Program-made: the position numbers and the translations under genes | In this document: positions 2,229 through 6,568 of the stretch, in pieces | Layout: each line of letters opens with the position of its first letter | How positions within the stretch are numbered: the first letter of the stretch is position 1 | The notes under the pieces: model-generated | Told to the model about the DNA's origin: nothing | Seen by the model: the letters and a program-made list of their open reading frames with translations, nothing else | Database searches by the model: none | From: Flavobacterium psychrophilum | GTDB taxonomy: Bacteria > Bacteroidota > Bacteroidia > Flavobacteriales > Flavobacteriaceae | Reading direction: 5' to 3' | Length of the DNA stretch: 9,965 bases | Assembly (NCBI GenBank): GCA_945907225.1 | Contig: CAMDSN010000045.1 | Location: forward strand, 1-9,965

Positions 2229-4676
2229 TTACACGTTTCCAATTCTAATTACGTCGGCAAAAATACCAGAAGCCGTAACAGCAGCACCAGCACCGGCGCC
2301 TTTAATAATTAATGGTTGGTCTACATATCGATCTGTGAAAAATTCTACAATATTGTCTTTGCCTTCTAAATTGTAGAACGGACTTTCCTTGGGTATAAAC
2401 TGCAAGCCAACAGCGGCTTTTCCATTATCAAATTTTGCCACAAATTTTATTCTGCATTCTTTCGCTTTTGCTTCGGCTAATAGTTTGTTAAAATGCGCTT
2501 CATGAGTAATGAGGGATTTAAAAAAGTCTTCATTATTTGTAGTATCCATACACGCTTTTGGTAAGAAGCAATTATTCTCAATTTCTTCAATATCCATTTT
2601 ATATCCACTTTCGCGAATAAGAATTAGAATTTTCCTTGCTACATCAACGCCACTTAAATCAATTTTCGGATCAGGCTCTGTAAAGCCTTGAACACCTGCT
2701 TCTTTTACAACATCATGAAAGTTATAATTTTCGCTAAAATTATTAAAAATAAAGTTTAAACTACCCGAAAGCACAGCCTGTATTTTATTTACTTTATCGC
2801 CTGAAGCAATCAAATGCTTGAGCGTGTCAATAATAGGTAATCCAGCTCCAACATTAGTTTCAAATAGGAACGGAGCATTGTATTTTCGAGATAGATTTTT
2901 TAGATTTTTATAATTTTCAAATTCAGAAGAACAGGCAATTTTATTACAAGTAACCACAGCAATATTTTGACTTAAGAATTTATCATACATAGATGCAATA
3001 TCCGAGTTTGCGGTTATATCAACAAAAATGCTATTGCGTAGATTTAATTTTTTGACGGTAGCAATAAAAACAGTATTATCAGTGTTTTCGCCTTCAGTTA
3101 GCTTATTCTTCCAGTCGTTTAGGTCAATTCCTTCCTCGTCAAACACCATTTTTTTAGAATTTGTTAGTGCAATAACTCGTAGATTGATCTTTAAGTTGTC
3201 TTTTAAGAAATTTTTCTGTTGTTTAATTTGATCAATGAACTTTTCTCCAACATTACCAACTCCCATCACAAATAGGTTTAATTGCTTTGTATTGTCTTCA
3301 AAAAATCTTTCATGAAGCGTGTTCAATGCTTTTACTACGTCTTTTTCATTAATCACAACCGATATGTTTCTTTCTGAAGCACCCTGTGCAATAGCTCTAA
3401 TATTAACGTTGTTTTTACCCAATGTGCTAAACATTTTACCACTAATTCCTTGGTGATTTTTCATGTTTTCGCCAACTAAAGCTACTATGCATAACTCTTT
3501 TTCAACAATGCAGGGCTCTACTCTGTTTTGTGAAATTTCAATTTCAAAGGTTTTGTCAATCGCGTCTTTGGCTTTAGCAGCATCCGAATTTAAAATGCCA
3601 ATGCAAATGGAATGTTCGGAAGAAGCTTGGGTTATAAAAATTACATTAATATTATGTTGAGATAAGACCTCAAATAATCGTTTTGATGAACCAGCAACGC
3701 CAATCATACCGGAACCTTCTAAAGTTAGTAAAGCTATGTTGTCTATATGCGAAATTCCTTTTATAGGGTTTGTAGTCGATTTTGAATTGCTAGAAATTAA
3801 GGTCCCCTTAGTATTGGGTTCAAATGTATTTTTAATTAATATTGGAATACTATCTTTTAAAACAGGTTGAATGGTTGGCGGATATAGAACTTTTGCTCCA
3901 AAATGAGATAATTCCATAGCTTCTTGATAGGATATTGTATCTATAGGTTGGGCTTGTTTTACAATTTTTGGATTTGCTGTAAACATTCCATCAACGTCGG
4001 TCCAAATTTCAAGAATTTCGGCTTTTAGGGCTGCGGCTAAAATTGCAGCCGTATAATCAGACCCCCCTCTACCAAGGGTGGTGCTGTTGCCATCTAGAGA
4101 AGAGGCAATAAATCCGGGCAAAACAACAACTTGAAATGAAATTGATTTATAAAAATCAGTTATTAAAAGATTTGTTTTTTCAAAATTAACTTGGGCCATT
4201 CCAAAATTTGAATCGGTTTTAATTAATTCTCTGCTGTCTTTAAAACAGGAATTAGCAACACTTTCTTTGAGAGCCAAAGCTATAATTTGAGAGGATAACA
4301 ACTCTCCAAATCCCGCAACGATATCAGCGGTACGATCTGAAATTTCACCCAAAAGATAACAGCCGTCCAAGAGTGTTTTTAAATGGTTGATAGCGCCATT
4401 AACGGTGTCTATTATTTCATTTTGATCACTTATTGGTATTAATTGATCTATTACTGCTTTGTGTTTTTGCTCAATTTCCGCAACAATTTCTTTGTATTTT
4501 TTATCTTTTGCCGAGGCAGTTTTTCCGGCTAGAAGTAATAAATCTGTTACACCACTAAATGCTGAAACTACAACATTTAATTTATGAGATTTACTTTTGT
4601 TTGCTACAATTGCAATTGTTTTTGAAATATTTTCTGAATTGGCTACTGATGTGCCGCCAAATTTTAATACTATCAT
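2229..4676 (-). CDS. thrA: Bifunctional aspartokinase / homoserine dehydrogenase
   Basis: Fused enzyme catalysing the first and third steps from aspartate to threonine: ATP-dependent phosphorylation of aspartate and NAD(P)H-dependent reduction of aspartate semialdehyde to homoserine. The length of 815 residues fits the family (E. coli ThrA is 820). The aspartokinase domain (about 1-300) shows KFGGTS (5-10), GRGGSDYTA (202-210) and DVDGMFTANP (227-236). Two ACT-type regulatory segments follow (about 315-460), including VALVGENMKNHQGISGKMFS and NVNIRAIAQGASERNISVV; in this family such domains bind threonine for feedback inhibition. The dehydrogenase part begins with the Rossmann motif GVGNVG (472-477). 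It continues with LSGSLNFIF (636-644) and FTEPDPKIDLSGVDVARK (665-682), where D678 and K682 match the catalytic aspartate and lysine of the family. It is the first structural gene of the thrABC operon and is preceded by a threonine-rich short ORF. Confidence 0.98.
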   Translation of the reverse strand: MIVLKFGGTSVANSENISKTIAIVANKSKSHKLNVVVSAFSGVTDLLLLAGKTASAKDKKYKEIVAEIEQKHKAVIDQLIPISDQNEIIDTVNGAINHLKTLLDGCYLLGEISDRTADIVAGFGELLSSQIIALALKESVANSCFKDSRELIKTDSNFGMAQVNFEKTNLLITDFYKSISFQVVVLPGFIASSLDGNSTTLGRGGSDYTAAILAAALKAEILEIWTDVDGMFTANPKIVKQAQPIDTISYQEAMELSHFGAKVLYPPTIQPVLKDSIPILIKNTFEPNTKGTLISSNSKSTTNPIKGISHIDNIALLTLEGSGMIGVAGSSKRLFEVLSQHNINVIFITQASSEHSICIGILNSDAAKAKDAIDKTFEIEISQNRVEPCIVEKELCIVALVGENMKNHQGISGKMFSTLGKNNVNIRAIAQGASERNISVVINEKDVVKALNTLHERFFEDNTKQLNLFVMGVGNVGEKFIDQIKQQKNFLKDNLKINLRVIALTNSKKMVFDEEGIDLNDWKNKLTEGENTDNTVFIATVKKLNLRNSIFVDITANSDIASMYDKFLSQNIAVVTCNKIACSSEFENYKNLKNLSRKYNAPFLFETNVGAGLPIIDTLKHLIASGDKVNKIQAVLSGSLNFIFNNFSENYNFHDVVKEAGVQGFTEPDPKIDLSGVDVARKILILIRESGYKMDIEEIENNCFLPKACMDTTNNEDFFKSLITHEAHFNKLLAEAKAKECRIKFVAKFDNGKAAVGLQFIPKESPFYNLEGKDNIVEFFTDRYVDQPLIIKGAGAGAAVTASGIFADVIRIGNV

Positions 4677-4758
4677 GATTTTAATATGCGTTGAAATTAT
4701 TAGTAATAAGTTGTCCTACTTTTTGTAAAAGTCAATTAACGTGGATTATATGAAATGA

Positions 4759-4857
4759 TTATACCCCAAATGGGGTTGAAGTTGTTTTGGTAACAACTAT
4801 AAATATAGCTGAATTAGCTGGAGCATATAAAGTAATTATGTTGTTTAAATTCCACAT
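4759..4857 (-). CDS. Candidate thr operon leader peptide, 32 aa
   Basis: A short ORF lies 82 bases upstream of thrA on the same strand, from ATG (4857-4855) to TAA (4761-4759). The peptide begins MWNLNNIITLYAPANSA and ends IFIVVTKTTSTPFGV. Residues 23-28 are T-K-T-T-S-T, giving four Thr in six codons (ACC, ACA, ACT, ACC), preceded by the Ile/Val run I-F-I-V-V. Overall there are 5 Thr and 4 Ile in 32 codons. Thr and Ile codons are what enterobacterial thr leader peptides use to sense charged tRNA, so this is a good candidate for ribosome-mediated attenuation of thrABC. The frame stays open upstream to a TGA at 4992-4990, but no ATG, GTG or TTG occurs there, so this ATG is the only plausible start. 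Two small hairpins lie within its 3' half. It is too short for routine gene finding; expression and function are inferred. Confidence 0.6.
   Translation of the reverse strand: MWNLNNIITLYAPANSAIFIVVTKTTSTPFGV
4763..4798 (-). promoter_or_regulatory. Two hairpins inside the candidate thr leader ORF
   Basis: Reading the minus strand, AGTTGTT and AACAACT (bases 4798-4792 and 4786-4780) form a perfect 7-bp stem with a 5-base loop that contains the first Thr codon of the Thr-rich tail. Immediately downstream ACCCC and GGGGT (4776-4772 and 4767-4763) form a 5-bp, mostly GC stem with a 4-base loop just before the stop codon. This is the only GC-rich stem in a very AT-rich spacer. A ribosome stalled at the Thr codons would cover the first stem and disturb the second. 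A further copy of ACAACTT lies at 4715-4709 on the same strand and could compete for pairing with the first arm. No U-run follows the GC stem, so it is not a standard terminator. The pairing is seen; the regulatory role is inferred. Confidence 0.4.
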
Positions 4858-4862
4858 GATTT

Positions 4863-4870
4863 CAAAAATA
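4863..4870 (-). promoter_or_regulatory. Candidate -7 box for the thr leader/operon
   Basis: The minus strand reads TATTTTTG, a full match to the Bacteroidota -7 consensus TAnnTTTG. It ends five bases before the ATG of the candidate leader ORF, so a transcript from it would start at or within a few bases of that AUG. This would make the leader peptide nearly leaderless. A matching TTTG -33 element is not visible at the usual distance; only a T-rich run is present there. In such AT-rich DNA a chance match is possible. Confidence 0.35.
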
Positions 4871-5065: not shown

Positions 5066-6568
5066 ATGGAAAATACGTACTATATCAGTTCTCAATTATT
5101 GACATTAGAGGATTTACAAATAATTGTTTCTCAAAACAAATTGCTTTCACTCTCAGATGAAGCAAAAATTAATATTCAAAAATGTAGAGCGTATTTAGAC
5201 AAGAAAATGGCGAATCAAGACAAGCCAGTTTATGGAATAAATACAGGTTTTGGTGCCTTATGCAATGTAAAAATTTCTAATAACGACTTGTCTGCTTTAC
5301 AAGAAAATTTGGTTCGCTCACATGCCTGTGGGATTGGAGATAGTGTTCCAATTGAGATTGTGAAAATCATGCTTTTACTTAAAATACAATCTTTAAGTTA
5401 TGGTCATTCTGGAGTTCAATTGATTACTGTTGAACGTTTGATAGATTTTTATAACCATGATATTTTTCCAGTAATTTATGAGCAAGGTTCCTTAGGTGCC
5501 AGTGGTGATTTGGCGCCATTAGCGCATTTGTCACTTCCATTGCTCGGTGAGGGAGAAGTATATTTTGAAGGAAAAAAAGTTGATAGCGCATTTGTATTGA
5601 AGAAATTTAATTGGAAGCCCATTATATTGCAATCAAAAGAAGGCTTGGCACTTCTTAACGGAACCCAATTTATGAGCGCTTATGGTTGTTATATTTTATT
5701 AAAAGCTTCAAAATTTTCATATTTTTCAGACTTGATTTCGGCTATATCGTTGGAAGCATTTGATGGTAGAATTGAGCCGTTTAATGAATTAATTCACTTT
5801 GTTCGGCCGCACAAAGGACAAATTAATACGGCAAAACGAATTAAGGAATTGCTTGATGGAAGTGAAATTATTTCACAAACAAAAGATCATGTTCAGGATC
5901 CTTATTCTTTTAGATGTATTCCTCAAGTTCATGGGGCATCAAAAGATACTTTGTCATACGTAAAAAAAGTGTTTACAACCGAAATTAATTCGGTTACAGA
6001 TAATCCGAATATTTTTGTTGAAAGTGACCAAATTATTTCTGGTGGTAATTTTCATGGGCAGCCCTTGGCATTAGCATTAGATTTTTTGTCAATTGCTTTG
6101 GCAGAATTGGGAAGTATCTCTGAGAGACGGACATATCAATTAATTTCGGGTTTAAGAGGCTTGCCGCCTTTTTTGGTTAACAATCCCGGACTTAATTCAG
6201 GATTTATGATACCGCAGTATACAGCTGCAAGTATTGCAAGCCAAAACAAACAATTGGCAAGTCCGGCTAGTGTTGACAGTATTGTTTCTAGTAATGGGCA
6301 AGAAGATCATGTCAGTATGGGCGCCAATGCTGCTACAAAATGTTTGAAAGTGATGGTAAATTTAGAACGAATTTTGGCGATTGAATTGATGAACGCTTCG
6401 CAAGCAATTGAATTTCGAAGACCACTGCAATCGAGCCCTTTTGTAGAATCTTTTTTGAAGTCATTCCGTTCGGAAGTTTCACTCGTGAAAGAAGACAGAA
6501 TATTACACTATGATATTCAAAATTCAATATCTTTTTTAAATACAATTAGTGTTGATTTTGATGAATAA
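5066..6568 (+). CDS. hutH: Histidine ammonia-lyase
   Basis: Deaminates L-histidine to trans-urocanate and ammonia, the first step of histidine degradation, in the cytosol. The length of 500 residues is normal. The Ala145-Ser146-Gly147 triad in GSLGASGDLAPLAHLSL cyclises to the electrophilic MIO cofactor. The active-site tyrosine loop is VYGINTGFG (Y56). Substrate-type residues point to histidine rather than tyrosine or phenylalanine: NLVRSHACG has Ser85-His86 where tyrosine lyases have His-Leu. Further signs are QDPYSFRC (Q277, Y280, R283), NFHGQP (F329) and GQEDHVSMG (E413). The gene stands alone between the divergent thr operon and the convergent clpC; hutU, hutI and hutG are not in the window, so the rest of the pathway must be elsewhere if present. 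The ATG at 5066 follows an A-rich stretch. Histidine lyase is favoured over related aromatic lyases on residue evidence alone. Confidence 0.94.
   Translation: MENTYYISSQLLTLEDLQIIVSQNKLLSLSDEAKINIQKCRAYLDKKMANQDKPVYGINTGFGALCNVKISNNDLSALQENLVRSHACGIGDSVPIEIVKIMLLLKIQSLSYGHSGVQLITVERLIDFYNHDIFPVIYEQGSLGASGDLAPLAHLSLPLLGEGEVYFEGKKVDSAFVLKKFNWKPIILQSKEGLALLNGTQFMSAYGCYILLKASKFSYFSDLISAISLEAFDGRIEPFNELIHFVRPHKGQINTAKRIKELLDGSEIISQTKDHVQDPYSFRCIPQVHGASKDTLSYVKKVFTTEINSVTDNPNIFVESDQIISGGNFHGQPLALALDFLSIALAELGSISERRTYQLISGLRGLPPFLVNNPGLNSGFMIPQYTAASIASQNKQLASPASVDSIVSSNGQEDHVSMGANAATKCLKVMVNLERILAIELMNASQAIEFRRPLQSSPFVESFLKSFRSEVSLVKEDRILHYDIQNSISFLNTISVDFDE

What the first reader, a model, noticed from the sequence alone, without database searches (positions are those of the whole stretch)
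4759..4857. Unannotated 32-codon Thr-rich leader ORF upstream of thrA
Seen: a short ORF with its own ATG and stop, co-directional with thrA and ending 82 bases before it. Its tail is IVVTKTTSTPFGV with four Thr codons in six. Known: thr operons of enterobacteria are attenuated through a leader peptide rich in Thr and Ile codons. Inferred: this is an analogous leader peptide in a Bacteroidota thrABC operon. Unlike the enterobacterial peptide, Thr codons are clustered at the 3' end and mixed with Lys, Ser and Pro, and the peptide ends in a conserved-looking PFGV. That could mean either tRNA sensing or a nascent-chain effect.
Basis: partly seen in the sequence, partly recalled or inferred. Interest (0 to 1): 0.72.

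Follow-up and report, generated by a model that had tools for sequence, protein, structure and literature searches.

The report
Threonine leader switch without a terminator
A short threonine-rich reading frame in front of the threonine-making genes of a Flavobacterium is kept in frame in many relatives, and it likely lets a ribosome short of threonine switch those genes on; unlike the histidine and isoleucine/valine leaders of related genomes it has no ordinary terminator hairpin, so its off-switch is predicted to work in another way.

Summary
The ORF is real: 4759-4857, minus strand, 32 codons, 82 bases before thrA of thrABC. Of 70 same-genus thrA upstreams examined, 65 (focal included) carry one module: a Thr-rich ORF ending at a CCCC/GGGG hairpin (H2) that holds or touches its stop codon, then a CATAT motif. 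The ACC frame is open for 22 or more codons in 65/65 genus and 95/95 family loci. Similar modules precede thrA in three further families. Rfam has no match. The PFGV tail is a by-product of H2 (peptides end P*, PLG* or PFGV*), which argues against a nascent-chain effect. Threonyl-tRNA sensing is the best reading, but the classical form fails: hisG and ilvD leaders of related genomes and three other thr leaders of the family have U-tract terminators; 156 of 160 leaders of the focal type, the focal one included, do not. A helix between the leader's 5' end and its Thr zone (P1) is supported by cognate-versus-swapped tests. I infer that a stalled ribosome holds H2 open and that a closed H2 otherwise leads to pausing and premature termination, perhaps by Rho. 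That step is untested, and the rut-like C>G bias of the family is absent in the focal genus.

The parts
4863..4870 (-). Bacteroidota-type -7 promoter box TATTTTTG (TAnnTTTG; consensus recalled), 5 bases before the leader ATG, so the transcript would start at or near the ATG
   Evidence: the only TAnnTTTG match on the minus strand between thrA and the divergent gene; a box lies upstream of an in-frame ATG in 65 of 65 genus and 76 of 95 family loci. Note: 12 matches in the window against 16 expected, so the box alone proves nothing.
4759..4857 (-). Leader ORF, 32 codons plus TAA; Thr codons 9, 23, 25, 26, 28
4840..4846 (-). 5' strand of helix P1 (AAACAAC)
   Evidence: Focal pairing; P1 as a class.
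4792..4797 (-). 3' strand of helix P1 (GUUGUU), just before the Thr zone; in the focal copy it can instead pair with the following AACAAC (4780-4786)
4807..4819 (-). Hairpin H1 (AGCU-AAUUC-AGCU) inside the ORF
   Evidence: Focal fold; consensus pairs; window MFE z -1.8 (65 genus loci) and -1.0 (95 family loci).
4774..4791 (-). Thr zone: codons 23-28, ACC AAA ACA ACT TCA ACC
4763..4776 (-). Hairpin H2 (ACCCC-AUUU-GGGGU); the last Thr codon lies in its 5' arm and the stop codon 4759-4761 follows it directly
4743..4752 (-). Conserved motif CATATAATCC, 11 bases after the last G of H2
4718..4732 (-). Counterpart of hairpin H3 (ACUUUU-ACA-AAAAGU), weak in the focal copy and not in its minimum-energy fold; no U-tract after it
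2229..4676 (-). thrA, aspartokinase-homoserine dehydrogenase; thrB 1219-2154 and thrC 3-1217 (runs off the window) follow

Best explanation
The 32-codon ORF is a thr-operon leader, kept in frame in relatives, that likely senses charged threonyl-tRNA through the position of its ribosome and would control thrABC in cis through a hairpin at its own stop codon, with no intrinsic terminator. Shown: the ORF and its conserved frame, its Thr codons at the 3' end, hairpin H2 at the stop codon, the 11-12 nt distance from H2 to the CATAT motif in the genus, the P1 pairing as a class, and the absence of a U-tract terminator. Inferred: with threonyl-tRNA short, a ribosome stalled in the Thr zone covers the CCCC arm, H2 cannot form and RNA polymerase runs on into thrA. 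With threonine ample, the ribosome ends at the stop codon and leaves, H2 closes behind the polymerase, which would then stand at CAUAU (the geometry of a hairpin-stabilised pause, recalled), and the paused polymerase is released before thrA, most likely with the help of Rho. P1 would fold the untranslated leader and be opened by the first ribosome.
For: Frame: the ACC frame is open for 22 or more codons upstream of H2 in 65/65 genus and 95/95 family loci (other two frames .26 and .72.24 and .52), with an ATG 18-60 codons back in 65/65 and 85/95. Codons: 436 of the 640 in-frame codons in the last 30 nt before H2 are Thr in 64 genus loci, none in the shifted frames. H2: segment test z -4.7 in the family; one outer pair covaries, 100 of 160 standard against 76.7 +/- 5.2 shuffled. 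P1: cognate against swapped 5' ends, genus p 1.5e-4 and .009, family p 2e-7 and 2e-6. No terminator: 4 of 160 pass a lax scan (scores 9-10, three of them H2 itself) against 12 of 13 hisG/ilvD upstreams (13-17) and 3 of 3 classical thr leaders of the family (12-17). H2 to CATAT is 11 or 12 nt in 62 of 65 genus loci. Rho gene in 12 of 12 genomes searched, focal included. All 5 class-level hits of the extended pattern lie before thrA.
Against: No expression data; the output step is untested. The C>G bias after H2 is strong in the family (p 5e-12) but absent in the genus (p .18). A ribosome at the stop codon masks H2 as much as one stalled on Thr, so the switch would have to work by dwell time. 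In the genus alone H2 shows no covariation (invariant arms; R-G p .06; flank pair p .38). The H2-to-motif distance scatters from 5 to 13 nt in the family by the simple rule used. P1 in the narrower window is not significant in the family (p .14). One close relative has lost the leader (L267); 5 of 70 genus upstreams lack the pattern, one of them (L067) with a variant by eye. The focal copy has fewer Thr codons than most.
Confidence: 0.55

Rival explanations
1. Classical attenuation with a weak terminator: H2 or H3 itself would end transcription without a proper U-tract.
For: Three H2 hairpins (L036, L250, L261) and one H3 hairpin (L097) pass a lax scan. R pairs with the H3 zone better than chance in the genus (p .014), which could be an antiterminator. 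H3 windows fold better than shuffles (mean z -1.5 genus, -1.1 family).
Against: 156 of 160, the focal one included, fail even the lax scan, while his, ilv and the three type-A thr leaders pass clearly. The R-H3 signal is absent in the family (p .43). GGGG:AUCC pairing is not supported.
Confidence: 0.15
2. Translational control: the leader ribosome sets a fold that frees or hides the thrA start region.
For: H3 zone against thrA start region z -3.5 in the family. In many family loci thrA starts only 65-110 nt after H2.
Against: The family signal is confounded, because the two segments overlap in short leaders; in the genus there is none (p .33). The stop-to-thrA distance in the genus runs from 63 to 267 nt, with inserts in some members.
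Confidence: 0.15
3. The ORF is translated but not regulatory, or only the RNA hairpins matter.
For: The focal ORF is poorer in Thr than its relatives'; L267 and some family members do without a leader.
Against: Frame, Thr/Ile codon run and position of the stop at H2 are kept in all 160 loci that carry H2, apart from 10 family loci without an ATG in range.
Confidence: 0.08
4. Nascent-chain arrest: the peptide tail acts in the ribosome tunnel.
For: A shared TTTTP/TPFGV-like end.
Against: The last residues change with the loop length of H2 while the nucleotides stay; the N-terminal half varies.
Confidence: 0.03

Closest known systems
Enterobacterial thr operon leader, thrL (recalled)
   Same: Leader peptide rich in Thr and Ile codons directly before thrABC; likely the same input.
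   Different: No intrinsic terminator here; the Thr codons abut a hairpin at the leader's own stop codon; no Rfam match.
hisG and ilvD leaders of Flavobacterium relatives (L138-L142, L144-L150)
   Same: Leader ORFs with runs of the cognate codons in the same genus.
   Different: They end in clear U-tract terminators. The focal genome itself gave no HisG or IlvD hit (76% complete).
Classical thr leaders within the same family (L252, L254, L260)
   Same: Short Thr/Ile leader peptides before thrA.
   Different: Terminator with U-tract present and no CCCC/GGGG hairpin at the stop codon.
Leader-peptide attenuation in Flavobacterium psychrophilum, PMC9723704 (passages and section 19 read; supplement not open to me)
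   Same: Reports 'strong clues' for leader-peptide attenuation upstream of amino-acid operons in this genus.
   Different: The words thrA and threonine do not occur in its main text; no terminator-less type is described in what I read. Whether its supplementary table lists thrA I cannot say.
E. coli tnaC and other Rho-dependent leader ORFs (recalled; search listing only)
   Same: A leader ribosome decides whether polymerase is terminated before the first gene without a terminator hairpin.
   Different: tnaC senses free tryptophan through its nascent chain (recalled); here sensing is predicted to be by codon, and Rho is untested.

Membership tests
Classical ribosome-mediated transcription attenuator | Leader ORF rich in codons of the operon's amino acid, co-directional and upstream | tested here: met
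Classical ribosome-mediated transcription attenuator | Rho-independent terminator (stem plus U-tract) between leader and first gene | tested here: not met
   none in the focal locus, 4 of 160 by a lax rule; controls 12 of 13 and 3 of 3.
Classical ribosome-mediated transcription attenuator | Mutually exclusive antiterminator pairing | tested here: inconclusive
   GGGG:AUCC not supported. Leader 5' end with the CATAT motif (P0) is in the focal minimum-energy fold but not general (family p .011, genus .61; family p .18, genus p .93).
Classical ribosome-mediated transcription attenuator | Expression rises when the amino acid is scarce | not testable with these tools
   Needs RNA or reporter data.
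Any Rfam family (4227 models; enterobacterial Thr leader and T-box belong there, recalled) | Covariance-model match at the gathering score | tested here: not met
   Searches (window; 9 loci): no match. (E up to 5): one sub-threshold match, on the plus strand, to a Streptococcus sRNA.
Rho-dependent leader (tnaC type) | Rho encoded | tested here: met
   12 of 12 genomes, focal included.
Rho-dependent leader (tnaC type) | C-rich, G-poor stretch after the leader stop codon | tested here: inconclusive
   family p 5e-12 against 60 control 5' regions; genus p .18 against 58.
Rho-dependent leader (tnaC type) | Rho-dependent 3' ends before thrA | not testable with these tools
   No expression data held.
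Nascent-chain arrest peptide | Conserved peptide motif at the stall site | tested here: not met
   end residues vary with the hairpin; the nucleotides are kept.

The most novel reading that the evidence does not exclude
A new class of amino-acid leader: a terminator-less attenuator, spread over several families of the class, in which the hairpin at the leader's own stop codon is the switch. A ribosome waiting for threonyl-tRNA holds it open; without a ribosome it closes and traps RNA polymerase at a conserved CAUAU site a fixed 11-12 nt downstream.
Probability: 0.4. Interest if true: 0.72.

Novelty: new variant of a known kind. Interest (0 to 1): 0.55.

Why it matters
Amino-acid attenuators are textbook, and their textbook form needs a terminator. 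Here, within one bacterial family, hisG, ilvD and a few thrA leaders keep that form while the common thrA leader does not. That gives a natural comparison of two ways to read the same ribosome signal, in a phylum where such control is little studied. A conserved hairpin at the stop codon with a fixed distance to a conserved motif also makes the polymerase step directly testable by 3'-end mapping. It may be a candidate for a new RNA family.

Tried and rejected
P0, a pairing between the leader's 5' end and the CATAT motif, looked striking by eye and is part of the focal minimum-energy fold. As a general feature it failed: family p .011, genus p .61; family p .07, genus p .011; in full-fold context family p .18, genus p .93. 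Kept only as a focal-clade possibility (L002, L003, L004).

GGGG pairing with AUCC as an antiterminator: not supported (family p 1.0, genus p .73). Thr zone with H3: genus p .014, family p .43. H3 with the thrA start region: family p .0025, but the segments overlap in short leaders; genus p .33. One search made 40 tests, so p values near .01 count for little; its U2 rows in the family are void (empty segments gave energies near 2734).

Rho and rut: C>G bias in the family, not in the genus. In one search the genus region was no more C-rich than the upstream control (C/G 1.45 against 1.54).

RNAalifold on 50 of the 65 genus loci (A1; 15 near-duplicates left out by me) gave 10 pairs, H1 and H2 only, with a covariation term of just -0.53 kcal/mol; 5 pairs had a two-sided change.

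Selection to bear in mind. Genus: 70 of the 101 genomes were examined; 30 with only weaker thrA-like matches and one without a match were not fetched. Family set of 95: 34 were found by the motif itself and 61 more come from a thrA search that ignores the motif. In one search, 36 of 57 loci had thrA nearby; 27 of the 57 had been picked by me from the listing because they looked alike. In one search, of 108 upstreams, the rule found a core in 77. I dropped six of these (L230, L233, L234, L237, L253, L254), leaving 71. By eye 15 more have H2 (L237 and 14 missed by the rule), 3 are classical (L252, L254, L260), 13 have none or are unclear, and 6 could not be parsed. work on subsets thinned for similarity (25-36 genus, 67-73 family).

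Patterns at wider range: one search found 4 of 196 order-level genomes, two before thrA (L154, L155), two not. One search found 5 of 295 class-level genomes, all before thrA, but its reversed control also matched 3 places. In one search (78 of 299 family genomes) many matches were chance, and the reversed control matched often too.

Literature: 8 full-text searches in an open-access library found no paper on a thr leader in this phylum; subscription papers are not held. PMC9723704: passages and section 19. PMC7366714, PMC2864571, PMC4833913: passages only. A 2010 comparative study of attenuators was seen only as an entry in a reference list. The rest were listings.

Full report
What is there. 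The window lies in contig C45 of a 1.65 Mb, 76% complete assembly; the nearest named relatives by thrA are Flavobacterium. On the minus strand run thrA, thrB and thrC; a histidine ammonia-lyase-like gene (Pfam aromatic amino acid lyase) leaves divergently at 5066. It starts 5 bases after a TAnnTTTG box, the recalled Bacteroidota promoter element, so its message would begin at or next to the start codon.

It is conserved. Of 70 same-genus thrA upstreams, 65 match a core of CCC, short loop, GGG, spacer and CATAT-like motif (the focal locus is one of the 65). In a test that does not choose the ORF, the frame that reads ACC into the hairpin is open for 22 or more codons in 65/65 genus and 95/95 family loci, the other frames much less often. 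In 64 genus loci, 436 of the last 640 codons before the hairpin are Thr and 52 Ile; over the family the fractions are .42 Thr and .20 Ile. Of 10 loci near named relatives examined, 8 carry the module, Winogradskyella ouciana (L270) does not, and L267 has a decayed copy. The motif occurs once in the focal genome and once in each of 8 of 11 other genus genomes, each time just upstream of the thrA found.

It reaches beyond the family. Two order-level loci of another family (L154, L155) and four class-level loci of two more families (L298-L301) show Thr/Ile leader ORFs ending in the same hairpin before thrA. I take the class to be Bacteroidia from the genus name (recalled; no call names it).

The PFGV tail. 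The hairpin H2 is kept, the residues are not. With a 3-nt loop the frame ends inside H2 (P* or L*, 42 of 64) or just after it (PLG*, 5); with a longer loop it runs to a stop directly after H2 (PFGV, PLGV or PFGVY, 15). So the tail is a consequence of RNA structure.

Structure. H2 is supported by the segment test in the family (z -4.7) and by covariation of one outer pair; within the genus it is too invariant to test. A helix P1 between the first 40 bases of the transcript and the stretch before and within the Thr zone is supported when each leader's own 5' end is compared with 5' ends of other species: genus p 1.5e-4, family p 1.8e-6 for the stretch 50 to 10 bases before H2, and p .009 and 2e-7 for the last 26 bases. 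Examples read from the sequences include GUAACAGCA with UGCUGUUAC and GCAACAGCG with UGCUGUUGC. H1 sits inside P1. H3 is a weaker, not universal hairpin further down.

No terminator. A lax scan finds stem plus U-tract in 12 of 13 hisG and ilvD upstreams of the same genus (the thirteenth, L143, gave none; a fourteenth locus, L151, was left out) and in 3 of 3 classical thr leaders within the family, but in 4 of 160 loci of the focal type, with lower scores, three of these being H2 itself. The classical mechanism is therefore excluded in its defining feature for the focal locus.

How it would work. The Thr codons lie directly before H2, so a ribosome waiting for threonyl-tRNA would cover the CCCC arm. 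H2 can close only when no ribosome is there, that is, after normal release. The conserved CATAT lies 11 or 12 nt after H2 in 62 of 65 genus loci, about where polymerase would stand when H2 emerges. I read this as a pause that becomes premature termination unless a stalled ribosome keeps H2 open. Rho is encoded (12 of 12) and the region after H2 is C-rich and G-poor in the family (p 5e-12) but not in the genus (p .18), so Rho is the likeliest but unproven executor. Input (threonyl-tRNA) I hold at about 0.85, the H2 occlusion step at about 0.5, Rho at about 0.35.

What is known. Leader-peptide attenuation upstream of amino-acid operons has been reported for F. psychrophilum (PMC9723704, passages and section 19); thrA and threonine are absent from its main text, and its supplement was not open to me. 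Nothing in Rfam matches. I file the finding as a new variant of leader-peptide attenuation, not as a member of the classical type.

Noticed in passing
L252, L254, L260 (family loci, upstream of thrA): Classical thr attenuators (e.g. MRQSNITTTIITSIP* followed by a U-tract terminator) occur in the same family as the terminator-less type, so the two forms have replaced one another.
   Followed up: partly
L138-L142, L144 (hisG) and L145-L150 (ilvD): His-rich and Ile/Val-rich leader ORFs with textbook terminators; none of the two of these loci sent to Rfam (L140, L145) matched a family.
   Followed up: partly
L267, about 250 bases upstream of thrA: Decayed leader in a Flavobacterium MAG: early stop, Thr codons and H2 lost, while promoter box and part of the CATAT motif remain. 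A natural loss variant.
   Followed up: no
L044, L046, L047, L049, L051, L052 and others, between leader and thrA: A repeated insert of about 80 bases (GTTTTCAGTTTCAGTTCACAG... AACCTTTGAACCTTTGTTACTC) lengthens the distance from leader to thrA in some members of the genus.
   Followed up: no
L273: A contig filed under a Candidatus Nitrotoga bin carries a thrA 85% identical to the focal one with the same leader; probably a mis-binned Flavobacterium contig.
   Followed up: no
window 4780-4798 (-): In the focal copy the P1 3' strand can pair with AACAAC within the Thr codons (AGUUGUU-ACCAA-AACAACU), an alternative to P1 also seen by eye in L003 and L004.
   Followed up: no
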